DNA of 64,000 nucleotides, taken from positions 56,690-120,689 of the forward strand of contig RWJK01000996.1 in NCBI GenBank assembly GCA_004335835.1, read 5' to 3'. The stretch's first letter is position 1. Each line of letters opens with the position of its first letter. The DNA comes from Scenedesmus sp. ARA3 (Eukaryota; Chlorophyta; Chlorophyceae; Sphaeropleales; Scenedesmaceae). The translations under genes were made by a program, and so were the position numbers. This document shows, in pieces, positions 22,090-64,000 of this stretch. The notes beneath the pieces were generated by a model that saw only the letters and a program-made list of their open reading frames with translations, was not told the origin of the DNA and ran no database searches.

Positions 22090-23204
22090 TGACAAGGTCG
22101 GTGGCAGTAACCCTGGAGGAAGGTGCAGTGCAACCACTGTGAGTTCACAGCGGCTAGATGAATCAGGGTGCTGCGAAGCCCATTCAGCATAGCGTGCAAG
22201 GCTGTGGGAACAACACGTGCGTGAGCGCGGCGCCAGTTCAAAGAGGGCCGCCGCAACGTATGCGAAGCTAATTGGGATGCAGTGTGGCGATATATGCTTG
22301 TGATTGCTGCTGCTGCACACCTGTCGTGAGGTGCGCGTGCCCATCTGGCGCGCCACAAAGGTCCAGTCGATGTTGTCCAGCGTCTGGCGGCAGCAGCAGC
22401 AGCAGCAGCAGCGGCGGTGGCAGCAGCAGAAGGCGCGTGAGTTACTGCCAGCTCCTGTGTGGGTGTAAATTGAAGACGTTGGCAATGCTGTTTCTGTATG
22501 AATGCAACGACCTAACCTAAGCGACCAGCAGCACACCATTATGCAGTGCTTCAGGTGGCACTGCTGCCCCTCACCGTGACAGCCACTGGCCGCACCTCAC
22601 TGGTCTCACTGGGCAGCAGGCTGCTCACCCAGACCCCATGCGTGCAAAAAGGCATCCTGCAAGTATAGTGCGCACGGCAGCGCTCACGCGCCCCTCACTG
22701 TGACTGCCACTCAAACAGCTTTGCACCACCTCCCAGTACACCACCACCTCCCACTGCACCCAACAGCCATGTGCTCGCAGGTACCAGAAGCACTCGCCCC
22801 TCACTGTGACTGCCACTCAACCAGCTTTGCCAACACCACTCGGCCCTCACCGTGACAGCCACAGGCCGCGCCTCAGCGGTTTCACTGGGCAGCAGGCTGC
22901 TGCTGATGGTGCAAAAGACATGCTGCAGGTACCAAAACCACCCGGCCCTCACCGTGACTGCCGATCAAACAACAGCTGTGCATCACCTTCCCGTACACCC
23001 AACAGCATCAAACCCACGGGCCCTCACCGTGACAGCCACAGGCCGCGCCTCACTGGCCTCACTGGGCAGCAGACTGCTGCTGATGGTGCGCGGGCCGCTG
23101 CCGCTGCCGTCTGTTGCCGCCTGCTGCTCCAGTGCCTGCCGGTAGCTGTCCACCAGGCTCTGCAGCAAGTCAACCTCGTCATCACTCCACTTGCCTGCGG
23201 CAGC

Positions 23205-23251
<47 letters not shown>

Positions 23252-26205
23252 CTTAGATGATGCAGTGTTGCAGCTGTCCACCAGGCTCTGCAGCAGGTCA
23301 ACCTCATCATCATCCCACTTGCCTGCTGCAGCGGCGGCAGCAGCCGCAGCAGCAGCAGCAGCCAAGGCCAAAGTCAAACAGATAGAACGATTGCACATGT
23401 GTCCCAGCAGGCAGGCTTGAGGTTGCACAAGTTAGCCAAGCAGTCAATTGTCTATGGTGTGCTGCGTGCCGTGCCGCACCTGTGATCAGGGGTAGGCCAT
23501 AAATTCAGACCTCGTGCCCTGTCCCGTGCCGCCCTGTCCAGCCGCCCCAGCCTGCGGCTGATCTCCATCTGCGCCCAGCCAAAATAAACACAAACTCAAC
23601 ACAAGAAAGCGCCGCACCTGTGTTGAGGGGCTGGCCGTAGTTTCAATCCCGCGCTCTGTCGCGCGCCGCCCTGTCCAGCCGGCCTAGCCTGCTGCCAACT
23701 TCCTTCTGCGCCCAGCCCAAATCAACACAACTTCAACACAAGACAGGGCCGCACCTGTGTTGAGGGGCTGGCCATAGTTCCAATCCCGCGCTCTGTCCCG
23801 CGCCGCCCTGTCCAGCCGGCCCAGCCTGCTGCCAACTTCCTTCTGCGCCCAGCCCAAATCAACAGAAATTCAACACAAGACAGGGCCGCACCTGTGTTGA
23901 GGGGCTGCCCATAGTTCAAATCTCGCGCCCTGTCCCGCGCCGCCCTGTCCAGCCGCCCCAGCCTGCTGCCGATCTCCTTCCACTTGGGCCCCAGCTCGTT
24001 GTATAAAGCAAGCAGCCTGGCATCTTCAGTGGCAGACCACTTGCCCTGTACAACAATCAAAAAAGCAGCATCAGCATCAGCAAGAGGACTTGCAGTGAGT
24101 CAGATCTCCTTCCACTGGGGGCGCAGCTCTTGGCACAAGTCCAGCAGCCACGCATCTTCAGTGGCAGACCACTTGCCCTGCAGCAGCAGCAGCAGCAGCA
24201 GCACTGGCAGCAGCTCAGCCGTGCGTTCAGCACTGCAATCCTACGCCATGCTTGCCTGGCCTGCACCTCTGTTGGCTGTGTGACTTCTGCTGCTTTCCCA
24301 GAATCTCCACCTCAGCAAGTGACACTGGCCAAGGCCAGGCTCAGCTCAGCTGTCGCAATGCCTGCTTGCATCATCATGAGCTGCAACGCTATGCACAAAG
24401 GCTGCAGCGCTATGCATAGGATCGCATTTCATTGCTCGCATCCCACCGCCCTCAGCAGCAGCAGCAGCAGCAGCAGCAGCGCCCACCTGCACCTCCGTGG
24501 GTGTGTAGTTGCCGCGCACAAACTGCCACACCGCCTTGCGCGTACGCTGCGGCAGCGCTGCCGCGATAGCGGTGATGGCGCCGCGCTTGTGGCCAGTAGT
24601 GGCACGCTCCACCAGCCAGTCGCACTCACCTGCAGGCGATTGCAATGATGAGGGCACATTTGAGCGGCATGCGGGCGCAAGCAGCATGTGCGGAGATGGC
24701 GGTGATGGCGCCGCGCTTGTGGCCAGTCGTAGCGCGCTCCACCAGCCAGTCGCACTCGCCTGTGTGGCGGCAGTTGAGATGAAGTAAAGCAAGTGAACAA
24801 GACATTCACATGGTGTGCGTGTGAGCAAAACTCATGAGGTGCTGGTTGTGTTGCCGCACGCAGCTGCCGCCCTGTGCAGCACACGCACGCTGCCCCTCCC
24901 ATGTAGGCACACTTGCAGCATCGGCACTGCCCCAACACCGCCAGACCAGATGCCACGACCACGCCCAGTGTGGTAACATGCAGGTATAGGAAGTTGAAGG
25001 CGCCTGCTTGAACCTGCAGCGCTTGTTTAACCTGAAGTGCATGCTAAACTCCAAACACATGTAAACCTTGGCTCATCCAGGCCATATGGCAGGCCGCGCT
25101 CATCCGCATACTCATGGATGGCTGTCAAACCTGAACTGCTGCAATCACCTTGCCTGCCTGCTAAACCTCAACCTGAACCGTGCCTAAGTCACCAAGGCCG
25201 TATGGCAAGCCGCACTGCCTTGCTTACCTGTTGATCGCTGTTGAACCTGAAAACCGCCCGCCAAACCTCAACCTTTGCCTGCTTAACCTCAACCTAAATT
25301 GCGTGCAACTCACCCAGGCCGTACGGCAGGCCGCGCTCCTCCGCATACTCCTGGATGGCTGCTGCGTTCCCGCTGTGCCCCAAATGCTTGCTTGCCACCA
25401 GAACAAACCGTACCAACAACCAAGCTGCCACCCTAACATCAGCAAGCTATGCAGCTGCAACTGCAGTGCACGCACGACTTCAGGCTCCTGCTAAACCTGA
25501 GGTGTCTTTGTACCCCGTGCCGACCCGCAGGCACCTACTACATAAAACAATGTGCAACTCACCCAGGCCGTACGGCAGGCCGCGTTCCTCCGCATACTCC
25601 TGGGCGGCTCTCGAACCTGAACTGCTGCCTGCTAAACCTCAACCTTTGCCGCCTGCTAAACCTCAACCTTTGCCGCCTGCTAAACCTCAACCTGAATTGC
25701 GTGCAACTCACCCAGGCCGTACGGCAGGCCGCGTTCCTCCGCATACTCCCGGATGGCTGCTGTGATTGCAGCACGCTCAGCGTCATCAAAGCGGCCGTGC
25801 TTCACATCGGTGCGGTTGTAGTCGGCGCGCCAGGAGCTGCTGCAACAGCAGAAGCAGAAGCAGCAGCAGGACCAAGTCAGACGTGCAGTCAGCTTTCCTT
25901 GGGCAGCAATGCAGACAAAAAGTGGCCTAACTGCAGCTGGCATGAGCACCTCCACCGATGGTCCGCAACTGCTGCTGCAACTGCTACTGCTACTGCTGCT
26001 ACTGATGCTGCTGTGGGTCTGAACAAGGCAGGCATGCTTACCTCTCTACAGCAGCACCACCGCCACCACCACCGCTGCCGCTGCTGCTAGTACCACCAGC
26101 CCTGCGTGCAGCAGCAGCACCGCCAGCTTCACCTGCTGCTGCTGCTGCCGGTGGCACTGCATCCCGAGTGAGCACTGTGTGCCTGCCTGTGCCAGGCCTC
26201 GCCAA

Positions 26206-27987: not shown

Positions 27988-28076
27988 ATGCTGCTCAGCA
28001 GCCTCAGGCGCAGCTGCCTGCGCCACATGGCAGCTACAGCAGCAACACCAAGGGCGACACCGCGCTGCCGCACCTT

Positions 28077-28113
<37 letters not shown>

Positions 28114-30186
28114 GCCATCCCGCCGCTGCCAGTGGTGCACCACCCGCTGTATAGCGCGCCGCAGCTGCCGCCAGGGCACCGCTTCCCAATGCAGGTGCTG
28201 CTGTATTGCTGGCTAGCTCACCAAGTGATTGCAACTTGCATGTAAACATGCAAGGGAAGTGGTCGGCAAATGATGTATCTGACTAGGCTCATGGTGTCTC
28301 AACAATGCTGTGGTGCAGCTGCTTTGGCCCACGGTTGTAATCCCTTTTCCCCACGCGCAGGTGTTCCGTGTGATCCACGAGCGCCTGCTGGCCCAGCGGC
28401 TCATCCTGCCCAGCCAGGTGCGCTGCTGATGTGGCAGATGATGTGGTAAACGTCAAGGGGGTCACCCACTAGGCTGGCTGCATTGCAACAACAGTTGCAG
28501 CACTTAAACACTGACAGTGTACTGTGCTGCCAGCCAGCAGCAACGCATGCCTACAGGGTGACGCTGCACTTCATGGAAGTGCTTGGTGTATGGCTTTAAT
28601 CCGCTCTTGCCCATCAGCCTGAGCTCACGATGACAGCTGAGCTGCATCACAACAACAATCCCAACACCACACGCGCGCTTGCCTTTGCCATGGTTTACCT
28701 TGTTGTTGTTGTTGTTGTTGTTTTTCAGGTGCATGTGCCGCCCAGCCTACCAACTGATGAGGAGCTGGCACTGGTGCACTGCCCCGAGTACCTGGCAGCC
28801 TTCTCAAGTTGTACGCTGGATGACCAGAGAGTGCGCAGGTGAACAACTGATGCCAGCAGTCATTCTGACTCAGCATACTGCAGTCCCATGGTGCACTGCC
28901 CCGGGTACCTGGCAGGCTTCTTTAACTGCAGCTTGCGAGTGCGCCAGCAAGTGAGCCAGCAGGAGCATCAGGCAATGCCAGCAACCATGTTGACTCATTG
29001 CCATGGTGTGGAACCTTGTTAGCAGCTTGTACACATCACGTTTCAACCTTGCATGTTAACCGCAGCTGACAGCACTGTCCCGCGTCACTTATTGTAACCT
29101 GCCGTTGCTCGCGGCGCACCCCCTTATTCCCTGTGAGATCGGCTTTGGTGGCGCAACGCGCACCCCAGCCCTCATCAACCGCCCAAAGATGTATTTGGCA
29201 TGCGCACAGCTTACACCGCTGACCGTGTCATGCCTTATGACCTGCTATTTCCCACACGTCAACCCCTCACCCCGTGCAGGATCGGCTTTGGTGCCGTCAC
29301 CCGCACACCCACGCTGGTAGACCGCACAAAATTCGAAGTGGCAGGCACGCAGTCAGCACCGCGGCCAGCACCCTCACAAGGCATGACTCCTGATATGAAA
29401 CTGCTGACTGCTTCACGTTGCCGTGACTCCACCCTCCACACTGTGCCGCATACCAATCTTTTTCTCCCTGCAGGATCGGCTTTGGTGCCGTCACCCGCAC
29501 ACCCACACTGGTAGACCGCACAAAATCGGAAGTGGCAGGCACGCTGCTGACAGCGCAGCTGGCGCTACAGCACGGCCTAGCTGTCAGCACTGCAGGCGGC
29601 ACGCACCATGCTTTTGCTGATGCCGGCAGCGGCTTCTGCATTTTGAATGACCTGGCGTACAGCGCGCACTGGCTGCTGGCGCATGGGGGGCTGCAGCGGG
29701 TGCTGATCCTTGACCTGGACGTGCACCAGGTGAGAGGCTGTGTCAATGCGATGTGGGACAAGTTGCTTGAACAGCAGTATGCACGGTGGCATGGGGGGCT
29801 GCAGCGGGTGCTGATCCTTGACCTGGACGTGCACCAGGTGAGAGAGATGAGAGATGACGCAGGGTGATGCTGTGTTATGGACAGTTTGTTTTGCTCGCGG
29901 GGTAACATACGGTGCTGCTTCTGCTATCCAAGCGTGGCCGCTTTGTTGTGCTTGACACTGGACCTGGTGTTGCATCAGGTGCGTGAGATGCTATGTCCTG
30001 ATACCCATAGCAAGTGAGCCTCAGGCTGTGGTGCGCGTAATGTGTTGGTGCCGATCCTGGACCTGGAGGTGCACCATGTGAGAGGCTGTGTCGATAGGAT
30101 GTGGGAGGCTGTGTCGATAGGATGTGGGCTGTGTCGATAGGATGTGGGACAAGATGCTTGAACAGCAGTATGCATGGTGACATGGG

Positions 30187-30240
<54 letters not shown>

Positions 30241-31526
30241 GGCCATTGCTGCTGCAGGGTGATGGCACTGCCCCCATGTGCGCCAACAGCCCCGGCATCT
30301 TCACTCTCTCTGTGCACGCCGCCTTCACTGCTCCTGCTTTGTTGCTGCTGTTGCTGCTGCTGATGCTGCTGCTACTGCTGCTGCTGCAGGGTGATGGCAC
30401 TGCCGCCATGTGCGCCAACAGTCCCGGCATCTTCACGCTCTCCGTGCACGCCGCCTCCAACTTCCCGGCCCGCAAGCAGACCAGCAGCCTTGACGTGCCT
30501 CTGCCTGACGGGCTGCAGGATGATGCCTATCTGGCGGCAGTGGCTGAGGTGTGTTTTCTTTGATGCAATGCATGCTCTGCGCATGGTGGTCTGTGCGTGT
30601 GTTGTCAGGAAGTGCAGTTGAAGTGTTGCTGCGTGACGGGCTGCAGGACGAGGCGTACCTGGCGGCAGCGGCTGAGGTGTGTGTCCTGATCCCACAGCAT
30701 GCTGTGTGTGTGGATGCTTTTGCATGCCATGTGATGCTGTGAAGTACAGTAGACGTGGCGCTGCTGGATGGCTGTAGGACGAGGTATGCCTGGCAGCAGT
30801 AGCTGAGGTGCATGCAACGTTTGCTACAGCAGTTGTTGCTGCTGCTGAAGTTCTTGGTTGATGCTTACAGTCCGCGTGGCGAGCTGCAGGACGATGCCTA
30901 CCTGGCGGCAGTGGCTGAGGTGTGTGCAGAGTATGTTTGCTGTGACAACCTGCTGCTGCTGGCACGTCGGAGCAAGAATTGCTGTTATGATGGTGCTGGT
31001 TGACGGAGAGTTTACATTCTACATGTAAGCATGGACTGCTGTGCGCGTAAAAAAAGGTCTATACTCTAGGATGGAAGGTACTGCGTTCAGCAGCTTCTGC
31101 ATGTGGCTGGCGTGGTGCTGAGTCTGAACGCAGTGTCATTGTGTGTGCGCATGCCGTGCTGGTGCTGTCTGGCGCGCTGGCAGCTTCTGGCGGCAGCTTG
31201 TGCTGCAAATGGCGGCGTGGAAGCATTGCTGTTGATGCTGCTGGAATTCATCAAAGATATATTATCTTCGCATGTGCTGTGCCATGCTGTGCAGGTGCTG
31301 CCTGGCGTGCTGAGCAGCTTCAGGCCGCAGCTGGTGCTGTACGATGCTGGCATGCAGACAAAGCTGATGTTACTGCCAAATGCATCCTTGCAATTGCTGT
31401 TTGTTGTGCAGGTGCTGCCTGGCGTGCTGAGCAGCTTTCGTCCACAGCTGGTGCTGTATGATGCTGGCGTGGACATCCACGTGGACGATGAGCTGGGGCG
31501 GCTGGCAGTCAGCGACGCAGGTGAGG

Positions 31527-31564
<38 letters not shown>

Positions 31565-32091
31565 AGAAGGTGATGGTGCTGGTGTTGTGTGTACTGTGCA
31601 GCTAGCTGCTGAAGGTGTTGTTACATGTGCGACAAGTTGGTGCGTCAGCTACAACCACTAATGCTGCCGCACAGCATGATGCTGGCCGTGCTCAACACCT
31701 GACACAGCCTCGATCCACCCATCACGGTTTATGACGCAGCGCTCTCAATCACACATGTGATACCTCTAGAGGTATGCAGATCTGCACTCAAAGTGCTCCA
31801 CCTGCTGTTGCTGCTGCTGCCGCTGCAGGGCTGATGCGCAGGGAGCTGCTGGTGCTGGACACCTCTAGAGTTGCAGTTGTGCTGAAAACTACATACGCTG
31901 TTGCTGCTTATGTTGCTGCTGCAGGGCTGATGCGCAGGGAGCTGCTGGTGCTGGACACCTGCCTAGGGGCAAGCGTGCCGGTGGCGGGCTACGTGGGCGG
32001 CGGCTATGCAAAGGACTTGGCAGTGCTGGCTGAGCGGCACATGGCACTGCACAGGGCGGCACTGCGCATGTGGGCTGACCACGGGCTTTGA
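27988..32091 (+). CDS. Zinc-dependent histone deacetylase-family enzyme, 7 exons, 354 aa
   Basis: The exons 27988-28194, 28361-28417, 28729-28838, 29474-29729, 30390-30548, 31412-31520 and 31925-32091 total 1065 nt with perfect phase. The fold is that of arginase/deacetylase enzymes related to class IV and bacterial-type HDACs. Visible catalytic elements are the tandem His pair in AGGTHHAFADAGSGF (about H169/H170), the zinc ligands in LILDLDVHQGDGT (about D207 and H209), the third ligand in LYDAGVD (about D284), and the active-site Tyr in YVGGGY (about Y327). All are intact, so deacetylase activity is expected. The first 45 residues are Arg/Ser-rich without acidic residues (MLLSSLRRSCLRHMAATAAT), like a transit peptide, so the enzyme may act in an organelle on non-histone substrates. 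A downstream start would remove this. Introns 3-6 contain partial copies of flanking exons. Confidence 0.92.
28885..28958 (+). repeat. Donor-side copy of HDAC exon 3
   Basis: A diverged repeat of the exon-3 end (ALVHCPEYLAAF region) and donor lies 50 bp past the real donor at 28839. Confidence 0.8.
29125..29362 (+). repeat. Two acceptor-side copies of HDAC exon 4
   Basis: The start of exon 4 (IGFGAVTRTPTLVDRTK) recurs at about 29130-29190 and 29280-29360. The nearer copy keeps a GTGCAG acceptor and is about 95% identical over 70 bp to the real exon starting at 29474. Confidence 0.92.
29780..30088 (+). repeat. Three donor-side copies of HDAC exon 4
   Basis: The exon-4 end (GGLQRVLILDLDVHQ plus GTGAGAG donor, real donor at 29730) recurs at 29787-29845 with no mismatch over 45 coding bases, and more diverged near 29945-29990 and 30035-30085. 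Confidence 0.92.
30189..30345 (+). repeat. (CTG)17 tract plus acceptor-side copy of HDAC exon 5
   Basis: A pure CTG run at 30189-30240 leads into CTGCTGCAG and about 70 bp copying exon 5 (GDGTAPMCANSPGIFTLSVH). The real exon 5 at 30390 has its own CTG-rich acceptor. Confidence 0.92.
30622..30930 (+). repeat. Three donor-side copies of HDAC exon 5
   Basis: The exon-5 end (DGLQDDAYLAAVAE plus GTGTGT donor, real donor at 30549) recurs ending near 30678, 30808 and 30920. Spacing is about 110-130 bp. Confidence 0.92.
31150..31365 (+). repeat. Two acceptor-side copies of HDAC exon 6
   Basis: VLPGVLSSFRPQLVLYDAG-like sequence with a GTGCAG acceptor occurs at 31294-31362, and a diverged copy at about 31155-31200. 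The real exon 6 starts at 31412. Confidence 0.9.
31825..31872 (+). repeat. Acceptor-side copy of HDAC exon 7
   Basis: About 40 bp (GLMRRELLVLDT with GCTGCAG acceptor) is identical to the start of the real exon 7 at 31925. Confidence 0.92.
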
Positions 32092-49903: not shown

Positions 49904-52857
49904 ATGACAGAACAACATCCACAAAACGATCACGACGGGGTCAGCGACGCCCAGGCCTTCCTGGCGGGAGCATCCTCAGCAGAGGCAGCAGACAGCCGAA
50001 AAGACAGTGCAGCCACACCTAACTCGGCACTCAGCCGGCGAGTCACGTTCTCTGACGATCACATAGTACATCAAATGCCAGGCGCGCCGTCCAGTGCAGG
50101 ATGGGAGTCAGAAGGTGAGCAGCAGCAGCAGCAACTTAAGCGGCGGCAACAGCAGCTCCAGCAGTGTCTGCCCTGCCTCACTGCGCAACAGCAAGCAAAA
50201 TTTAAAAGGTGAAGAATGCAATAGAGCTGTGTACTCTACTTGAATGGTCACACACATGGCATGTCACTCTATCGGTGCATGTCAAGTGGCAGTACAGCCA
50301 CCACATGGCTGCTGCGCGCACATGGTACGGCTTGCCTTGCAGTGGCCTGCATCCCAGTTGCAACGACGATCATAATCAACTCCTGCACCTGACTTCACCA
50401 TGTGCTCACCACGAACAAAGTAAGCAGCTTTCAAACGAGCGCGCATCATCATTAGCATTGTCCTCACGCAGTCTTTTTGCCATGCGCCTGCGATGCCATT
50501 GTGACGTTCTGCAGCAGCTGCAGATGCAGAGACTGGCTGCTGGCAGGCCTTCAACGCGCGAGTGAAGGCGCTCAAGCGGGACGTGCTAGCGCTGTACTAT
50601 GCAGGTGAGGAGGCAGCAGCGCCACGCAGTGTTACATCACGCAGCACCCTGGTCCCACGAGATGGGCTGTTCTCAACAGTGCCGCCAGTGGCGCCACAGC
50701 ATCCCTGCTAGCCCGCAGTGTGTGTGCGCTGCTGCTGCCCGTGCATGCGCAGTCAGCAGGAATGCGGCCACACGACCCACAGCAGATGTTTTGTTGGTTT
50801 ATATGTCGTGTGTGGTCTGTTGTGATCTGCTGTTGTGCGGACACTCCGCAGCAGGCGAGCTCCAGGGAGATCAGGACTTTGAGCACTTGATGAAATATGC
50901 CACAGCCTCATCACTGCATTGTACTGACATGGGGTAGCACAGCATACCCACAGCAGCGTCCGACAGTCGTTGTCATGTGCCAGCATGGAGGCAGGCAGTG
51001 CACACACTCCAGGCTTTCACGGGGGCATCAGGCAGCAGCAGCTGTTGTTGTGCTGCAGTGCACGATCCCCTGACCCCCGTGATGGCCAAGCTGCTGCCGT
51101 GGCTGGTGCTGGCACATGACATGCTCCTTGCCTTCCTTTGCAGTGTGGCCGTGTTGCCTTGATTGCAGTGCACGATATCCGGACGCCGGCACTGCCCAAC
51201 CTGCTGCCGTTGCTGGTGCTGGATTGATGAATGCTTCTCTCCTTGCTGTGTTGCGCACCACCTTGCAGTGCATCATCCCTGGGCGCTGTAGCTGAGCACA
51301 CTGCTGAACGTCATGCACAGCCCTGCCTCCTCACACTCTGCATCATGCCGCCACGCCGTTCAGTACATGACCCCCGGACCCCCGTGCTGAGCAAGCTGCT
51401 GCCGTGGCTCGTGCTGGCTCAATGACACACACGCGTCTTTCCTTCCTGGGCTGTGTGGCCGTGCTGCCTTTGATTGCAGTGCATGACCTGCACACGCCTG
51501 TGCTGCCCAAGCTGATGCCGTGGCTGGTGCTGGCGCTATTCAACACCCCTTATCTTGCTGTTTTGCCACTCTGCTGCGCAGTGCACAGTTGTTGGAGCCC
51601 CGTGTTGTCCAAGCTGCTGCTAAACGGCGCGCTGATCTTTGTGCTCCTTCATTGCTGTTTATGTGCTGCAGTGCACGACCCCCGGACCCCCGTGCTGAGC
51701 AAGCTGCTGCCGTGGCTGGTGCTGGCGTATGCTCTGAGCCCGCTGGACCTCATCCCGGACTTCATCCCCGTGCTGGGGCTGCTGGATGACATGCTGCTGC
51801 TGCCGCTGGGGCTGTGGGTCTCGTATAAGCTTATACCAGCACAGGTGGGTGTGAGTCAAATGTTGATGTAGTGCTTCGACTGCTGGACGACATGCGGCTG
51901 CTGCCTCTGGGGCTCTGGGCATCCTACAAGCTCATAGTGGCACAGGTAAGTGTGCGCAGGGGCCAGCCAGTGCTGATTTCGCCTGAACATCACATGCTGC
52001 TGGACCTCATCCCGGACTTCAACCCCGTGCTGGGGCTGCTGGACGACATGCTGCTGCTGCCGCTGGGGCTGTGGGTGTTTTACAAACTTATACCGGCACA
52101 GGTAAGTTCTATGCGGACTGGTACATGAGCAGACATGCCGACATGCTGATGCTGCCGCTGGGGCCGCGGGTCTCCTGTAAACTCATACCGGCACAGGGTT
52201 GTGTGAGTTGGATGTTTTCTTCATGTGCTTGGCTTGCTTGACAACATGCTGCTGCTGCCGCCGGGGTGGTGGGTTTTGTACAGACTCATATCTGCACAGG
52301 TGGGTGTGGAGCTCCTTGTACATATGTTTATGTAACGGTTTGACTTGCTACATGTGAGTTACTCCTCTCTCTCTACACTGCCATGTGCCGCAGGTGATGC
52401 AGGCTGCACTGCATGTGAGGTATCCTACTGCTGACGAGTATGTGCTTGTGGTCTATTTTGCTTCTGTGCAAGCTGAGGAGGAGCCGCTGCTGCTATGATC
52501 AATGTACGCATGTGCTGGTTGCTCAACATGCCTATGCCTTGTATCTGTGCGCCGCAGGTGATGCAGGAGTGCCGGCAGCGGGCTGAAGAGGAGCCGCTGC
52601 TGCTGGAGCGCAACTGGGTGGTGGCCGTGCTAGTCTTCGTACTCTGGACGGCCGGGCTGCTGCTGCTGGTGCACTGGCTGGTGCGGCAGTACGGGGATGA
52701 TGACCTTCGGCCGTATGAATGGGCAGTGCTAGCAGGCACGGGGGGTGTTGCTGCGATTGTGTTTTCGGTGTGGATGATTTCAAGGCTGCGGTATGAGGCG
52801 CGGCGGCGAGACGAGTGGAATGTGGCCCTGCTGGCAGATGCGGGGCGGGTGCTATGA
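49904..52857 (+). CDS. DUF1232 (YkvA-type) membrane protein, 4 exons, 257 aa
   Basis: The exons 49904-50114, 50515-50604, 51672-51844 and 52558-52857 total 774 nt in frame. A polar, Ser/Ala-rich N-terminus (about 70 aa) precedes [19 protein letters not shown]. Next comes the DUF1232 core with [20 protein letters not shown], then the signature [18 protein letters not shown] and a hydrophobic stretch ([16 protein letters not shown]), ending at about residue 158. The last exon adds two membrane segments ([18 protein letters not shown] and [18 protein letters not shown]). DUF1232 proteins are small membrane proteins of unknown biochemical role, found in bacteria and plastid-bearing eukaryotes. 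Exon 3 is flanked by five acceptor-side and four donor-side copies, the densest case in the window. Confidence 0.9.
51058..51630 (+). repeat. Five acceptor-side copies of DUF1232 exon 3
   Basis: Copies of [18 protein letters not shown] with preceding intron begin near 51058, 51169, 51364, 51480 and 51582. Three keep a clear TGCAG acceptor. The real exon starts at 51672. Spacing is about 90-195 bp. Confidence 0.95.
51868..52302 (+). repeat. Four donor-side copies of DUF1232 exon 3
   Basis: Copies of [22 protein letters not shown] end near 51944, 52102, 52195 and 52300. Three end in GTAAGT or GTGGGT, the third in GGTTGT. The second is about 100 bp long, starts at LDLIPDF and differs from the exon mainly at silent positions. 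Confidence 0.95.
52390..52500 (+). repeat. Acceptor-side copy of DUF1232 exon 4
   Basis: CGCAG followed by GTGATGCAGG and a later EEEPLLL-like stretch repeats the start of exon 4 (52558), with an insertion inside. Confidence 0.75.
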
Positions 52858-56540: not shown

Positions 56541-59500
56541 ATGTCAAACAACACACCATTGAGCGAGGCGGACATCCCGCAGTTGCTGCAGCTGCTGCAG
56601 GGCGCTCTCAGCCCGGACGCCCCTACGCAGAAGCAGGCTGAGGCAGTGCTGGCATCCATAGAAGGCAGGATAGGCTACTGCTCCTGTTTAGCGGTGAGCA
56701 CGTGGTGCTAGCCGAAGCGATCGCCGCAGCAACCGATGACTAGCAGCAGCTTGACAGCTGCTGCTGCTGCTGCTGCTGCTGCTGTGCTGTGCTGCTGTGT
56801 GTGCAGGCAGTCATTGGCAGCAAGGATGCGGACCACAGCGCCCGCTGGCTAGCAGCTGTGCAGCTGAAAAACAGCGTCAACAAGTACTGGAGGCCGCGAT
56901 ATGACAGCGGGTGCGCTTGCAGGAGATGTGGTGACAGGGCAACTCGTGCAGCTGCAAGCGCAGCGTTAAGCCTCGTGCAGCCAGCAATGGTCGGCCCTCA
57001 CACCATCACACCAGCTCTCAATCAATACTGCAGATGTGACGGATATATCAGTCAGCCGCACATAGCAGCCGCTCTGTGCAGCCCTAGGCCAGCAGCAGTG
57101 TTTCTGGCTCTGCTGCAATGGCTGCTCTTTTGAACATGGTGACAGCCCAACAGCATGATCACATACCACGCACCAGCACAACAGCCCAAGCCAGCAGATG
57201 CTTATCCAGCCGTCCTGCAAGGGCTGCTGCTAAACCTGCTGCCCCGTTGGGATGGCTGCGCAGGGGCCTGACAGCAGAGGAGCGGGCCTACCTGAGGGGA
57301 CGCTTCCTGCAGCTCATCCCACAAGATGACAACCAGGTAGCTGCAGCTGAAGTTAAAGCTGTCTGACTGTATGTATGCCTGTATAATTGCTGTGCGCTAT
57401 CGGTCGTGCAAGAGGCAGCTGGTGCAGCAGCACATGTAGAGGGGTCTTTTCCTGCAGCTCAGCCCTCAGGACGACAACCAGGTAGCGCTTAACATCCAGC
57501 TGCCTATTTGCAACTGTGCGTGTATTACTGATGTGCACCAGCTGTCCCACAAGAGGAAGCTGGTGCAGCAGCACACGCAGAGGGGGCAGTTCATCCCACA
57601 GGACGACAAGCAGGTAGCGCTTTACAAGCAACTGCCTACTACCTGCGTGTCTGCTAATGTGTGCTGCGTAACAGTTGTCCTGCAAGAGGCAGCTGAGCTG
57701 TGCAGCAGCAGCTGTAGAGGCTGAGCATCCCTGTCAGGCACAGCAACTACTTCCTGCAGCTCCTATCATGAAATTATGGCTAGAAACAAGCTAAACGCTG
57801 CCTGCACAGTGGACGCCCGGCAGCCCACATCCAGCGTACCAGCTGTCCTGCAAGAGGCAGTGGTGCAGCAACGGCGCTGGAGATTTTAGCCGTGTGTTTT
57901 GTGCACCTGCCCGCTTTCTGTTAGCGTCAGTAACAAGTGCCAACACATACCTTTCTTGCAGATTGTGGTGCAGGTGGCGCTGGAGGTGGCCAAGGCCCTT
58001 CCATCAGCCAGTCATCAAGCTGCACAGCTTGCTGTTGTTGTGCCCTGACACGTGACATGTGTGCTCCCCCGGTTGCTCTGCTTCGGTTTGTGTGGCGCAC
58101 GGCTGGCACTGCCTCTGTTCGCAGATTGCGGTGCAGGTGGCGCTGGTGGTGGCCAAGGTGGCCCGCTTTAACTTCCCAGCCAGTGGCCCAGCCCAACAAA
58201 TAGCCCGTGTGCTCTCCTTGATTGCCTGCTCCTGTTTGTGTTGCCTCCGTCTGCAGATTGCGGTGCAGGTGGCGCTGGTGGTAGCTAAAGTGGCCCGCTT
58301 TGACTTCCCCAGCCAGTGGCCCAGCCTCTTCAGCGACCTACTGGCAGGCCTGGAGCCAAATGCAGCAGCAGCAGCAACAGCAGGTGGTGGTGGCAGTGCT
58401 GCGGGGCCGTCGCTGCTGCTGGTGCGGCGCACCTACTTTGTGCTGCACCACGTGCTCAAGGAGCTGTCCAGCAAGCGGCTGGCGGCAGACCAGAAGGCCT
58501 TTGCAGAGGTGGGTCTGCAGGACTAAACACAGCAGCAGCGGCAGCAGCAGCAGCAGCAGCGGAACTACTACCGCCGCACTCGTGTTGTGGCTGGCATCGT
58601 GCGCCAGTGCACCATATGGCCATCAGTGTTGCCTGTCCGGGCGCCTGCTTTGTTTCAGCATCAGCCGTGAAGTGCTGCTTGCACTGGCGGTGCCTGCTGA
58701 GTGACGTGCATGCAGTAACAGTTGTCCAGCAAGTGGTTGGCGGCAGACCAGAAGGCCTCTGCAGAGGTGGCTTCTGGTCTTGCAGGAAGCACTTGCAGGA
58801 GACCAACAAACACAGCAGCAACAGAGACAGCAGCAGCAGCAGCAGCGCAGCATGGCATGCATCGAGCTGGTAGCTGCGGTACAACTGCTTGCTGACAGCA
58901 ATGCTGCATGTTGCCTTGTGTGCCTGCTGCCTTCGCGCTCGCTGCTGTAACAACCAACAGGTCACCAAGCTGCTGTTTGACCATGTGTGGAGCAGCTGGT
59001 GCAGCCTGCTGGGAGACATCTTGGGGGCACTGCCTGCAGCGCTGGCAGCACCCGGGGCGCTGGCGCCCCCGCAGCTGCTGCTGGCTTTTGAGCGCTGGCT
59101 GCTGCTGCTCAAGGTGGGGTGCTGGCCAGGCTGCTGCCAGCTGACTTTGGTTTTCGCTGTTTACATCATGTACTGCCTCCTTATTGACATGCGCAGGAAG
59201 CAGCATAGGCAGCTTGCGGTTTCTGGTCTGCACACATTTTGGAAGCATTGCCGCTTCATTGTTCAAGATTCAAGTCGAGCCTACATCTAACTGTTGTGAT
59301 ATCTGTGTGTGTATGTGTGGGCCCACCCTCCCCCTGCAGATCCTGCGCAGGCTGCTGCTGCACGGCTTCCAGCCAGACGCCAAGTCGCTGCAGCCGGTGC
59401 AGGCCGTGCTGCTTGTGGCGCCGCAGCTGCTGCAGGCGGTGGCGGCGCTGCAAGCCGCACGACCGGGCAGCAGCGAAGGCGGCAGCAGCAGCAGCAGCAG

Positions 59501-62500
59501 CAGCAGCGGCAGCGTGGGTCGCAGCCAGCTGGCGGCTATGGTGGAGCGTGGGCTGCTGAAGCTGCTCAAGACGCTGAGCCAAGTGCAGCAGGAGCACCCT
59601 TGGTGAGCGGGAACGTGTGTTTTATTTGAAGCCTTAGTCAAGTATATCTATGATGGCTTTGGTACATTTGCTGCACATGCTGCGTGTATGCCTTGAGACA
59701 CTGAGCCAGGTGCAGCAGGAGCACCGTTGATGAGCGGCGCTGATCAAAGAGTTTAGCCTTGTCATCATTTTTGGACACTCTGCAAAGGTACTGTGTCTGA
59801 CTATTGGTGTCCAGCACGACAAGGACGGCAGTCCCAGCAGCTGCGGGGTCGGCAAATCTTGTGTCCCATGCCACGTGCCTCAACTCCCCCAAACACTTCT
59901 CATACATCCTCTGTGCCCTCTCCTTGCCCCTTTCTTCCTTGGACCACTTGTCATGTCCTTCCACACCGCAGGTGTGCTGCTGTCCACGCTTGATGCCTGC
60001 TGCTGCCAGCTGCCTGCATTCATTGCAGAGTTTTGTGAGTTTTGTGGCGACTGTCTAACACTGCACTGCTGCCACTGGTCCTTTTATGCGGCCGGCGTGT
60101 TGCTGTCCAGCTGTGTGCCTTCCTCACTGAATATCTGACACATGCCTGACATTCCTCGCACTGCTGCCGCAGGTCCTTCCACGCAGCCGGCGTGCTGCTG
60201 CCCACACTGGAAAGCCTGCTGCTGCCAGCTGTGAGCCTTCCTCACCGAAAATCTGAAGTATGCTGCGCACTGCACTGCTGCCGCAGGTCCTTCCATGCAG
60301 CCGGGGTGCTGCTGCCCACGCTGGACGCCTGCTACAGCCTGCTGCTGGCGGCAGCAGCGGCAGGCGGCGGGCCCTTTCCCCCGGCGCGCGAGGCGCTGCT
60401 GAGTGCTGCCTGCGGCTGCGTGCGGGGGGTGCTGGGCTGCGACGGCTACGCGGGGCGGGCGGGCAGCGGCATGGGCAGCGCAGCCGAGCGGGTGAGTGCT
60501 TGCAGTGTCCACTGGACTTGCAGTGTGGGCTAAGGACATCACAGCGGTGACACAGGCATTGCAGGAGAGCATGTGAGCATTGTCAGTAGCTTTGCGCACT
60601 GGGAGCGGCTCAAGTATACAGTTGGGGTGGTGGTGGGGTGGGCTGCGACGGCTACGCGGGGCGGGCGGGCAGCGGCATGGGCAGCGCAGCAGAGCGGGTG
60701 AGTGCTTGCAGTGTCTAAGAACATCACAGCGGTGACACAGGCATTGCAGGAGAGCAGGTGAGCATTGTCAGTAGCTTTGTGCAGTGGGAGCGGCTCAAGT
60801 ATACAGTTGGGGTGGCGGTGGGGTTGGCTGTGAGGGCTACGCGGGCCGGGCTGGCAGCGGCACGGGCAGCGCGGCTGAGCAATGGAGTGCGTGCAGTGGT
60901 TGTGCACACTGAGAGTGGCTCAAGGCACAGTTGGGGTGGCGGTAGGGTCCAGGGTGGGCTGTGACGGCTACGCGAGGCGAGCTGGCATGGCGGCATGGGC
61001 AGCGCAGCAGAGTGGGTGAGTGCTTTGAAGGTCCAGTGGGGGCTGCAGCAACCGCATGGGCAGTGCAGCGGACCAAGTGAGTCAGGTGTACCAGCCAGTG
61101 ACATCGGGAGTGTTGCAACCAACATAGCAGGGGCGGCATGTGCAGCGCAGCTGACCGGTGGCGTGTAAGTAGAGGCTGTGTGCACTGGGAGCGGCTCGGT
61201 AGAAAGGTGTAGAGTTGGGGTGGTGGTGGGGTGGGCTGCGACGGCTATGCGGGGAGGGCTGGCAGTGGCATGGGCAGCGCGGCTGAGCGGGTGAGTAGCT
61301 GCGGTTTGAGGGTGTGTGTGGGCACAGCAATGCTGCTGACTAACATGGAGAATGCGTGTTTAGTATTTGCAGAGCTTCTGGTGCGTACTGGAGATGACAT
61401 TGTGACAGCTGCTGCAGCAGCCGTACTGTGTGCTGCATTGACTGCTGCTGCAGCACCAGCATGCTTTGTGCTGCTCCTAAAGTTTTTGCTTCATTTGCAG
61501 TCTGTTGCATATCGTCACTACCTGCTGTTGATTGCAAGTCACAAGTTTCTGTCACGCATGGTGGTTGCTGATTGCCTGACCTGCAGGCTGCCGCCATCAA
61601 GCCCATGGCAGCCGAAGTGAGCAGCCAGCTCAGCGCCTGGTGGGGTGCCCCCGCCCAGCTGCCGCCCCTGCCAGCACTAGTGGCAGCAGGCATTGTTTCC
61701 CCACAGCAGCAGCAGCAGCAGGCGCACACGCGGCAGGCGGTGCTGCTGCAAGTGCTGATAGCAGGCTACTTTGTACTAAACCACAGAGACCTAGAGGAGT
61801 GGGCAGATGATCCGGAGACCTGGGCACATGCAAATGCAGACACAGCAGCACACAGCGAAGGCCTGAGGTCATGCTGCCACCAGCTAGCATTGAGCCTGCT
61901 GCTTGCTGACAAGGCTGCACTAGCGCCAGTGCTAGTGCAGTTGCTGCAGCAGGTCAGTCAGGTGGTGCCTGCTGGCTGGGGTGTGGGGGCTCCGCCAGCT
62001 CAGCAACAGCAGCAGCAGGGGTGGCAGCCGCTGCCTGGTCCTGCAGTGCATGGCACTGGAGGTGTGCAGTACCCTGCTGTGCTGCTGCTGAAAGAGGCAG
62101 TGTATGAGGCAGTAAGCCTGGCAGCGTATGACTTGCATGACTATGTGGACTATCAGGGCTGGCTCAGGAGCAGTTTGCTTCCTGAGATGATGGCTGTACA
62201 GCAGCAGCAGCAGCAGCAGCAGCAACAGCGGCTGCTGCCAGTAATGCCGCGTGCAGCTGCACGCTTAGTCGGGCACTGGGTAGCAGACCTGAAGAATGAA
62301 GACAGGCCGGCTGTCTACACGGCGCTGACGGTGCTGCTGGTGCAGCCTGCAGCGCAGCAGCAGGCGGCTGGCAGCAGCGGCAGCAGCAGCAGCAGCGGTG
62401 TAGATGTCGTGCTGCAGCTGGCAGCTGTTGCTGCGCTGTGTGCGCTGGTGGATGACTTTGGCTTTGAGGGCGAGGCCTTTGTGGCGGTGCTGCCTGCCGT

Positions 62501-64000
62501 GCTGGGCGCGCTGTGCGGCATGCTGCAAGAGAGTGAGGAGCTGGACACACAGACACAGGTGGGTGCAACCAGCAAGCTCTGGTTGCACAGTTCTGAATCT
62601 GTTGATGCATTAGGCAGGGTCCTGGCATGCTATGTGCGCATTGTGTGCTGCTGCGGCTGATGGAGCGTATGTGTCGCACAGAAGCATGGGTAGGCGCTGC
62701 CAGGGGCACAGACACTTGAACAAGCAGCTTGCACCTGTCCCTTCAAAGACGCAGCCAATCATTGGGCGTGCTCGAGGTTGATCATGCTCAAGTTTGTCCC
62801 GCTGCACACCGTCTGCGCCCGCCAGGTGTTTGGGCTCATGAACCTCATCATCGAGCGCCTGGGGCAGGACGTCATCGCGCCGCACGTGGGCGGCATCCTG
62901 CCGCTGCTGCCGCGCATCTGGGAGGCGGCAGCAGACCAGAGCCTGCTGCGCATACAGGTGGGCGGAATTAGGACGGGCCTTGCTGTGCTACAGGCGGGGC
63001 TGGCTCAGCCAACATCTGGCAGGCAGCAGTGGCAGCCTCAGACCAGCCTGCTGCGCGTACAGGTTTGAGCATGGGGCTCTTGCTGCACACAGATGGGTCT
63101 GGCTTAGTCGACGTTTGACACGCAGCGGCTGGCCAGAGTCTGCTGAGCATACATGTGGTGCCTGCTGCTGTCGTGTTGCTGTGTGGATGCCAGAGATTGT
63201 ATGCTGCAGTTCGCTGCAGGTCAACAGGTTGACCAGAAGGTAATGACCGAATGTAACAGCTGTATGGCCTCGTCACCCCACCCACCTCTTGCAGGTGCTG
63301 TGCTGTGCTGTGCTTCGCTGCTGGTCAACGTGCTGTGCAGCATGTTGCTGCTGATTGGGCTGTGTTGCTGTGATGCTTACTGCTTACACTTGCCCCTGCA
63401 TCATTGCAGGTGCTGTGCTGCGCCTCGCTTCTGGTCAACGTGCTGGACCTGCTGTGCCTGCTGCAACCTGATTGTTTTCTTCAAACACCTTGTTAAGTCC
63501 CCGCCTGCCTGCCGCCAATGCAGGTGCTATGCTGCGCCTCCCTGCTGGTCAACGTGTTGTGCAGCATGTTGCTGCTGATGGTTCTGCTTTGCTTGGAAGC
63601 GTGCTGCTTACAGTTACCCCTGGTTGCTTTTGCAGGTGCTGTGCTGCGCCTCGCTTCTGGTCAACGTGCTGTGCAGCATGTTGCTGCTAATGGATCTTCT
63701 TGGCTTGGATGCATATTGCTCACCATTATCCCTGGTTGATGTTGCAGGTGCTGTGCTGTGCTTCGCTGCTTGTCAACGTGCTGGGCGAGGGCAGCGCCGC
63801 CACGTACGGCCTGCTGCTGCCGCTGCTGCAGCAGTCGCTCCATCCAAACAGCCCCCAGCCGGAGCTGCTGGAGGACGCGCTGTGCCTGTGGCTGGTGGCG
63901 CTGCGCAACGCGCCCGGGGGTTTAGGGGCAGCAGAGTGCGGTGGCCCTGCTGGTGCGCTGCTGCAGCTGGCGCCAGCGCTGGCTGCCTGCCTCACCAACA
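56541..64000 (+). CDS. IPO11: Importin-11-like nuclear transport receptor, 5' part, runs off the window
   Basis: The exons 56541-56693, 56807-56910, 57264-57336, 58257-58508, 58961-59113, 59340-59602, 60287-60491, 61587-62558, 62826-62957 and 63748-64000+ are in phase throughout. The start has the importin-beta N-terminal layout: helices LSEADIPQLLQLLQGALSPD and KQAEAVLASIE, then DHSARWLAAVQLKNSVNKYW and LTAEERAYLRGRFLQLIPQD. Downstream HEAT-like helices include VALVVAKVARFDFPSQWPSL. Importin-11 marks are YFVLNHRDLEEWADDPETW, an acidic-tryptophan motif of this family, and LLEDALCLWLVALRNAPG near the window edge. The protein carries cargo (in animals, UBE2E3 and rpL12) into the nucleus under Ran control. 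Ser- and Gln-rich insertions come from triplet tracts. Most introns contain partial exon copies. Confidence 0.9.
57412..57622 (+). repeat. Donor-side copies of importin-11 exon 3
   Basis: The exon end (FLQLIPQDDNQ plus GTAGC donor, real donor at 57337) recurs ending near 57481 and 57613, with more decayed fragments near 57690 and 57850. Confidence 0.88.
57953..58200 (+). repeat. Two acceptor-side copies of importin-11 exon 4
   Basis: IxVQVALxVAKV with TTGCAG or TTCGCAG acceptors occurs at 57961 and 58126. The second extends 70 bp, with three silent changes, one replacement and a 1-base deletion relative to the real exon at 58257. Confidence 0.93.
58703..58778 (+). repeat. Donor-side copy of importin-11 exon 4
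   Basis: SSKxLAADQKAxAE plus a GTGG donor repeats the exon end (real donor at 58509). Confidence 0.88.
59960..60240 (+). repeat. Three acceptor-side copies of importin-11 exon 7
   Basis: SFHAAGVLLPTLDAC-like copies begin near 59972, 60077 and 60175. The third keeps GCCGCAG and is nearly identical for 50 bp to the real exon at 60287. Confidence 0.93.
60640..61296 (+). repeat. Five or six donor-side copies of importin-11 exon 7
   Basis: GCDGYAGRAGSGMGSAAER plus GTGAGTG (real donor at 60492) recurs ending near 60697, 60875, 61015, about 61075 (partial), about 61155 (partial) and 61291. The first and last keep the donor and open frame. Confidence 0.93.
63028..63155 (+). repeat. Donor-side copies of importin-11 exon 9
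   Basis: DQSLLRIQ-like ends recur near 63063 and 63153, decayed, past the real donor at 62958. Confidence 0.75.
63290..63700 (+). repeat. About 113-bp tandem array: four acceptor-side copies of importin-11 exon 10
   Basis: Acceptors followed by VLCCASLLVNVL begin at 63295, 63410, 63524 and 63636. The real exon begins at 63748. Spacing is 112-115 bp. Three copies share a CAGCATGTTGCTGCT tail absent from the real exon. Confidence 0.95.

What the first reader, a model, noticed from the sequence alone, without database searches (positions are those of the whole stretch)
28839..31924. Introns built from partial copies of the flanking exon junctions
In the fully phased HDAC gene, introns 3 to 6 contain about a dozen partial exon copies. 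Every copy obeys one rule: a copied exon start (with acceptor) lies upstream of the real exon, and a copied exon end (with donor) lies downstream. Repeated tandem duplication across an exon-intron junction gives exactly this, because the outer copy becomes intron while one junction stays in use. The same rule holds in nearly every multi-exon gene of the window, so it looks like a genome-wide mode of intron growth. I do not know a description of it in green algae.
Basis: partly seen in the sequence, partly recalled or inferred. Interest (0 to 1): 0.88.

Follow-up and report, generated by a model that had tools for sequence, protein, structure and literature searches.

The report
Introns grown from exon-edge copies
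In a green alga the long introns are largely stacked, decayed repeats of the neighbouring exon's edge in steps of about 125 bases, which suggests that introns there lengthen by repeated duplication across splice junctions and that the exon-like pieces are then oddly well preserved.

Summary
The window is Tetradesmus obliquus. The HDAC gene model is secure (solved homologue; identical protein from another assembly). Introns 3-6 carry 12 clear partial exon copies plus one decayed one; all obey the stated rule. I tested the rule on 97 homology-anchored introns of 30 genes. The predicted exon edge matches its own intron in 20/97 (exon end) and 25/97 (exon start). Wrong edges match in 1/79 (itself part of a long exon-end copy) and 0/80, reverse complements in 0/353. 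Copies track intron length: 32/44 introns of 300 nt or more carry one, against 1/53 shorter ones. Repeat spacing has a sharp mode at 90-150 bp. Tandem duplication across junctions is therefore well supported as origin. Differences are skewed to third codon positions, and donor copies keep G at +5 in 40/41. I favour duplication followed by exon-limited exchange with the real exon; selected use of the copies and origin from diverged alleles remain open. Frequency varies: 4/39 introns in an unselected kinesin set. Single precedents exist; I found no description at this scale.

The parts
27988..28194 (+). HDAC exon 1 (start codon inferred)
   Evidence: translation; from residue 49 of the model on, the alignment to 9rje_A runs through
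28361..28417 (+). HDAC exon 2
28729..28838 (+). HDAC exon 3
29474..29729 (+). HDAC exon 4
30390..30548 (+). HDAC exon 5
31412..31520 (+). HDAC exon 6
31925..32091 (+). HDAC exon 7 with stop
28889..28921 (+). Intron 3: end-type copy of exon 3 (of 28772-28804, 94%, spacing 117); stops 34 nt short of the junction
29137..29219 (+). Intron 3: start copy of exon 4, spacing 337, 73%, acceptor AG lost
29280..29379 (+). Intron 3: start copy of exon 4, spacing 194, 86%, acceptor intact
29789..29837 (+). Intron 4: end copy of exon 4, spacing 108, 100% over 49 nt and 7 nt into the donor
29947..29990 (+). Intron 4: decayed end copy of exon 4
   Evidence: 77% to the 29789 copy
30048..30077 (+). Intron 4: end copy of exon 4, spacing 348, 90%
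30258..30327 (+). Intron 4: start copy of exon 5, spacing 132, 93%; the whole unit incl. CTG run repeats (30191-30327 / 30327-30459, 88%)
30614..30676 (+). Intron 5: end copy of exon 5, spacing 128, 82%
30752..30807 (+). Intron 5: end copy of exon 5, spacing 259, 74%
30871..30919 (+). Intron 5: end copy of exon 5, spacing 371, 88%
31162..31246 (+). Intron 5: start copy of exon 6, spacing 250, 71%, acceptor AG lost
31295..31358 (+). Intron 5: start copy of exon 6, spacing 117, 88%
31829..31864 (+). Intron 6: start copy of exon 7, spacing 96 (not among the copies counted, which masked low-complexity sequence)
   Evidence: (D11)

Best explanation
Long introns of T. obliquus grow by tandem duplication of roughly 90-150 bp units (and multiples) that straddle an exon-intron junction. 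Shown: the copies, their one-way geometry, the unit-length window, that the junction contiguous with the full exon is the conserved one, and that copy number tracks intron length. Inferred: the outer copy is tolerated because the intact exon keeps both of its own splice sites, while a truncated exon copy has only one and is not recognised as an exon. Inferred: after the duplication the exon-derived block, and not the faster-diverging intron block, keeps being rewritten by short-tract exchange (gene conversion or replication template switching) with the nearby real exon, so exon blocks look young inside old units. Candidate mutational sources for the unit, not tested: fill-in at staggered nicks or breaks, or slippage limited to about one nucleosome length.
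For: Direction: exon end vs own intron 20/97, exon start 25/97; wrong edges 1/79 and 0/80 (the one is part of a 133-nt exon-end copy of a 147-nt exon); reverse complement 0/353; non-adjacent introns of the same gene 3/1046; other genes 21/5295. 80 of 90 copies reach within 12 nt of the junction. Spacing: events per 10 bp rise to 28 at 120-130, are 20 at 140-150 and 3 at 150-160; smallest spacing in 62 of 85 clusters is 90-150 bp; nearest junction copy 92-148 bp in 32 of 44. Whole-unit tandem alignments that include intron sequence. Length: copies in 32/44 introns >=300 nt against 1/53 shorter; length about 271 + 154 x copies, Spearman 0.77. Real junctions: identical to the protein of another T. 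obliquus assembly and gap-free to a transcript-derived relative (HDAC only). Copies strictly local for the two exons searched. Exchange: exon part 0.889, intron part 0.614, unrelated 0.535 over 77 copies; intron-part homology detectable in 23 of 77, mean identity 0.79-0.86 by class; identity unrelated to distance, nearest copy best in 10 of 20 junctions.
Against: Simple exchange from the real exon should leave residual differences rich in amino-acid changes; instead third positions are 2.81-fold over the rate expected from positions 1-2 (CI 2.27-3.61; 4.96 in copies >=88% identical; ceiling 1.71 for a neutral copy). Changes private to one copy are less skewed (49 third, 56 first/second), so part may be mutational. 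Donor copies keep G+5 in 40/41 although +4 and +6 differ in 32% and 44%, which exchange does not explain. No exchange tract was observed directly; one genome only.
Confidence: 0.5

Rival explanations
1. Plain version of the first reader: junction-crossing tandem duplication, then neutral decay of the whole outer copy, with no further process.
For: Geometry, spacing and length growth; splice dinucleotides are lost with age (intact 21/22, 37/39, 12/19 by falling identity).
Against: For copies >=93% identical in the exon part, the six non-consensus nt next to the splice site differ at 48%; only 6 of 18 copies >=95% identical have detectable intron-part homology, microsatellite masking hiding some. 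Of 247 high-identity blocks at spacings >=85 bp only 3 fill at least 85% of their spacing; with longer blocks included there are 10 such young full-unit blocks in 297,695 bases.
Confidence: 0.13
2. The copies are functional: partial exons with working splice sites are selected, for instance as decoys or as inner splice sites that let long introns be removed stepwise, or are read into some transcripts.
For: Donor copies agree with the real donor at +1 100%, +2 98%, +5 98% but at +4 68% and +6 56% (41 copies); few indels in copies >=88% identical (7 in 3228 nt); third-position bias.
Against: Acceptor AG decays with age. Inner ends carry no splice site: AG directly before the inner end in 1 of 41 end copies, GT directly at it in 0 of 39 start copies. 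Spacing is not a multiple of three (remainders 0, 1, 2: 28, 22, 30 of 80). End and start copies occur together no more than expected (11 of 44 introns >=300 nt, with 19 end and 24 start).
Confidence: 0.15
3. Copies come from diverged homologous chromosomes (hybrid ancestry or very diverse alleles) by unequal exchange, so copy and real exon differ as two functional alleles do: synonymous changes, different but good donors, diverged introns.
For: Coding-like divergence with diverged flanks and different consensus-keeping donors; flank divergence hardly changes with exon identity (0.48, 0.49, 0.58).
Against: No allelic contig for either exon searched; only local copies and two paralogue hits. Several arrays would need more than two alleles. 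Intron divergence is much larger than third-position divergence.
Confidence: 0.13
4. De novo intron gain by duplication of an AGGT-containing exon segment (Rogers model).
For: Tandem duplicates of exon sequence lie in introns; many real junctions are CAG|GTG.
Against: That model puts the upstream exon's end against the real acceptor and the downstream exon's start against the real donor, without extra splice sites. Here start copies mostly carry their own AG and end copies their own GT (70 of 80 intact).
Confidence: 0.04
5. Assembly artefact.
For: Only one assembly could be searched.
Against: Junction-touching copies range from 71 to 100% identity with coding-patterned differences, which misassembly does not produce; copies occur in genes on many contigs.
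Confidence: 0.02

Closest known systems
Potato RdRp gene, intron gain by tandem duplication crossing an intron-exon boundary (PMC4974935; abstract and passages seen)
   Same: The duplicated segment joins the 3' side of an intron with the 5' side of the exon, as in the exon-start copies here.
   Different: Single event; there a new intron arose between the copies using a cryptic donor. [quoted passage not shown]
Internal gene duplication and intron creation (Rogers 1989; Gao and Lynch 2009; Hellsten 2011; known to me through PMC4974935 passages and recall)
   Same: Tandem duplication inside genes as a source of intron sequence.
   Different: Exonic AGGT duplication creates new introns; geometry opposite to the rule seen here.
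Tandem repeats in plants and green algae (PMC3887541; abstract and passages seen)
   Same: Reports more tandem repeats near intron-exon junctions in introns, especially in two green algae.
   Different: In the passages seen the motifs discussed are short; no exon-derived 100-bp units, no direction rule.
Small tandem duplications by fill-in at breaks, Pol alpha-primase (PMC8355091; passages seen) and patch-mediated duplications in rice (Vaughn and Bennetzen 2014; only its reference entry seen)
   Same: Mechanism that makes short tandem duplications at break ends.
   Different: Not shown in algae in what I saw; no 90-150 bp size class in the passages seen.
Introners (PMC9860276; passages seen)
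   Same: Large-scale intron change, also in algae, with a link to nucleosome positions.
   Different: Introners are dispersed transposable elements; these copies are local and gene-specific.

Membership tests
Junction-crossing tandem duplication (potato RdRp type) | Duplicated unit contiguous across the exon-intron junction | tested here: met
   80 of 90 copies reach the junction; whole-unit gapped alignments including intron; but the intron part is detectable in only 23 of 77 copies
Junction-crossing tandem duplication (potato RdRp type) | New intron formed between the copies | not testable with these tools
   No RNA data; homologous proteins show no extra residues at HDAC junctions
Rogers / Gao-Lynch intron gain | Copy of downstream exon start lies against the real donor and copy of upstream exon end against the real acceptor | tested here: not met
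   Copies carry their own splice dinucleotide in 70 of 80; nearest copies sit 92 bp or more from their own real junction
Introner | Near-identical introns dispersed in many genes | tested here: not met
   Two whole-genome DNA searches: copies only in their own gene, besides two paralogue hits
Whole-exon (mutually exclusive) exon duplication | Copy spans the full exon with both splice sites | tested here: not met
   Far exon edge matched in 1/79 and 0/80; the one is a long end copy lacking the first 14 nt of its exon
Paired-nick or fill-in tandem duplication | Dependence on the repair factors concerned | not testable with these tools
   Needs mutants or mutation accumulation

The most novel reading that the evidence does not exclude
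Introns of this alga hold a maintained reserve of functional exon edges: the intronic copies keep coding-type and donor-site constraint because they are used, or are regularly swapped with the real exon by recombination, so that exon edge and intronic copies evolve as one small array.
Probability: 0.15. Interest if true: 0.92.

Novelty: new variant of a known kind. Interest (0 to 1): 0.72.

Why it matters
How introns lengthen is usually put down to transposons or drift. Here length grows in countable steps with a marked origin in each step, so intron growth, splice-site choice among many near-identical competing sites, and short-range homogenisation can be read off one genome and tested by resequencing. 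A published table gives T. obliquus a mean intron length of 462 bp against 230-302 bp in four other green algae (PMC5966456, passage seen), which this process could explain.

Tried and rejected
Opposite geometry, whole-exon copies, inverted copies and dispersed copies were tested and rejected. A first BLAST-based spacing histogram could lose short spacings through BLAST's containment filter, so I repeated it with exact words; the 90-150 mode stayed and a smaller class of short-period repeats (<50 bp) appeared. Nested stepwise splicing predicts paired end and start copies; none beyond chance. A gene-model-free direction test was weaker than the gene-based one: 73 of 112 clusters with rule geometry against 20.8 for interior edges and 0.4 for random intervals, but 40 of 112 clusters also show swapped geometry (11 of 31 in the window, 29 of 81 elsewhere), which I put down in part to intron blocks that also end at splice sites, without testing it. 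The single wrong-edge match (1 of 79) turned out to be part of a long exon-end copy. Ten of 90 copies do not reach the junction. Literature: searches (open-access library only) listed no description of pervasive exon-edge copies in algal introns. Rows dropped: anchors with strong overlap on the profile (11, the shorter of each pair), introns whose model scored under 10 (10 of 101), three fetched kinesin genes without a usable intron (C1203, C577, C157), copies with under 35 matched nt (3 of 80).
Full report
Where it is. The window belongs to an 87.27-Mb, 1567-contig assembly. The HDAC protein built from the window is 100% identical to a Tetradesmus obliquus protein from another assembly over 93% of the searched stretch. 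Among the 120 best hits listed of 7975, the named ones are mostly green algae and then cyanobacteria, so this looks like a plastid-type HDAC gene. The gene model has seven exons. Residues 49-354 align end to end to PDB chain 9rje_A with one single-residue gap (E 1.7e-134), and the protein has one Pfam domain, Hist_deacetyl. In one search the protein of the other assembly is identical over the junctions it covers (it starts two residues before the end of exon 1), and a transcript-derived protein of a relative aligns through the same junctions without gaps. So the exon edges called real are the conserved ones.

The observation. Introns 3-6 hold 12 clear partial exon copies plus one decayed copy, all in the stated geometry. 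Searching the whole genome with exon 4 returns, besides itself, only its own start upstream and its own end downstream. Searching with a TCP1 exon returns local partial copies and two paralogue hits.

Wider test. Pfam searches of the genome gave exon positions for HDAC, kinesin, TCP1, tRNA synthetase and HSP70 genes, about 70 gene clusters by my count. I fetched 29 loci and used one locus; they hold 32 of those genes, 29 of which gave a well-scored intron. The first 20 loci were kinesin loci taken in list order, one at a contig edge skipped. The later nine were large genes, six of which had already shown overlapping partial hits, so frequencies outside the kinesin set are biased upward; the direction test is not. 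Introns were modelled from homology anchors, reading frame and splice consensus: 91 of 101 scored well, plus 6 HDAC introns, 97 in 30 genes. Results: the last 60 nt of the upstream exon matches its intron in 20/97, the first 60 nt of the downstream exon in 25/97 (17/91 and 22/91 without the window gene). The wrong edges match in 1/79 and 0/80, reverse complements in 0/353, non-adjacent introns of the same gene in 3/1046, introns of other genes in 21/5295. The single wrong-edge match belongs to a 133-nt exon-end copy of a 147-nt exon. Of 90 copies 80 reach within 12 nt of the junction. Such copies occur in 33/97 introns, in 30/91 without HDAC and in 12/29 other genes. By set: kinesin 4/39 introns, HDAC relatives 1/4, HSP70 11/29, TCP1 9/11, tRNA synthetase 5/8.

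Intron growth. Copies occur in 32/44 introns of at least 300 nt and 1/53 shorter ones. Length fits 271 + 154 x copies; introns without copies have a median of 233 nt. A published table gives T. obliquus the longest mean introns of five green algae compared (462 bp, PMC5966456, passage seen).

Unit length. Exact-word repeat events per 10 bp of spacing run 2 (80-90), 11, 15, 24, 28, 22, 20 (140-150), then 3 (150-160), with broader excess at 220-280 and 300-350 and a separate class of short-period repeats under 50 bp. In 62 of 85 repeat clusters the smallest spacing is 90-150 bp. The edge near 150 suggests a limit set by chromatin or by the repair step; that is inference.

The anomaly. If a unit is copied in one event, exon part and intron part have the same age. 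Because the real exon is constrained, the intron part should diverge at most about twice as fast. Instead exon parts average 0.889 identity and intron parts 0.614, with unrelated introns at 0.535 (77 copies). With gaps allowed, intron-part homology is detectable in 23 of 77 copies, and in 6 of 18 copies whose exon part is at least 95% identical (masking of microsatellites hides it in some). Where detectable it averages 0.79-0.86 identity by class, so the intron part did belong to the unit there. Identity does not depend on distance from the real exon. The differences are coding-like: in copies at least 88% identical, positions 1, 2, 3 differ at 0.031, 0.026, 0.143, and 128 of 136 third-position differences are synonymous; the ratio to expectation is 4.96 (3.62-6.86), against a ceiling of 1.71 for a neutral copy beside an exon free at synonymous sites. 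Over all copies it is 2.81 (2.27-3.61). Selecting on identity inflates the first figure. Changes private to one copy are 49 third against 56 first/second, changes shared by all copies against the real exon 18 against 4, so part of the bias comes from the real exon's own synonymous change and perhaps from more mutable third positions. Donor copies agree with the real donor at +1 in 100%, +2 in 98%, +5 in 98% (G in 40 of 41) while +4 is 68% and +6 is 56%; acceptor AG agrees in 82-85% and decays with age.

Reading. Duplication across the junction is well supported as origin. Preservation needs a second process. Exchange limited to the exon block, because intron blocks soon become too different to pair, fits the sharp boundary, the lack of an age gradient and the old flanks. 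It does not by itself explain the third-position skew or G+5. Selected use of the copies explains G+5 but has no visible splicing route: the inner ends of the copies carry no splice dinucleotide (AG 1 of 41, GT 0 of 39) and spacings are not multiples of three. Diverged alleles explain the coding pattern but no second haplotype turned up for the two exons searched.

Known work. A potato gene shows one junction-crossing duplication that made a new intron (PMC4974935, abstract and passages). A survey notes more tandem repeats near intron-exon junctions in two green algae (PMC3887541, abstract and passages). I found nothing on exon-edge arrays as a general mode of intron growth (searches; open-access papers only).

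Noticed in passing
L033 7642-8300: TCP1-family intron with a 107-bp array of six exon-end copies carrying donor sites; the longest regular array I saw in the sample.
   Followed up: partly
30085-30148: Short 20-23 bp tandem repeat GGCTGTGTCGATAGGATGTGGG inside intron 4, nested in the donor-side repeat.
   Followed up: no
28077-28112, 30188-30258, 31527-31566: CAG/CTG runs, coding (poly-Ser frame) in exon 1 and non-coding in introns 4 and 6; some sit inside the duplicated units.
   Followed up: partly
22568-25762, 51041-52349, 57294-61330, 63315-63786: Other dense local-repeat clusters of the window, not assigned to genes.
   Followed up: partly
window HDAC gene: The gene looks plastid/cyanobacterial in type: after green algae the named best hits are cyanobacterial, so its introns probably post-date endosymbiosis.
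   Followed up: no
L025: Two adjacent kinesin genes on C1428 look like a tandem paralogue pair.
   Followed up: no
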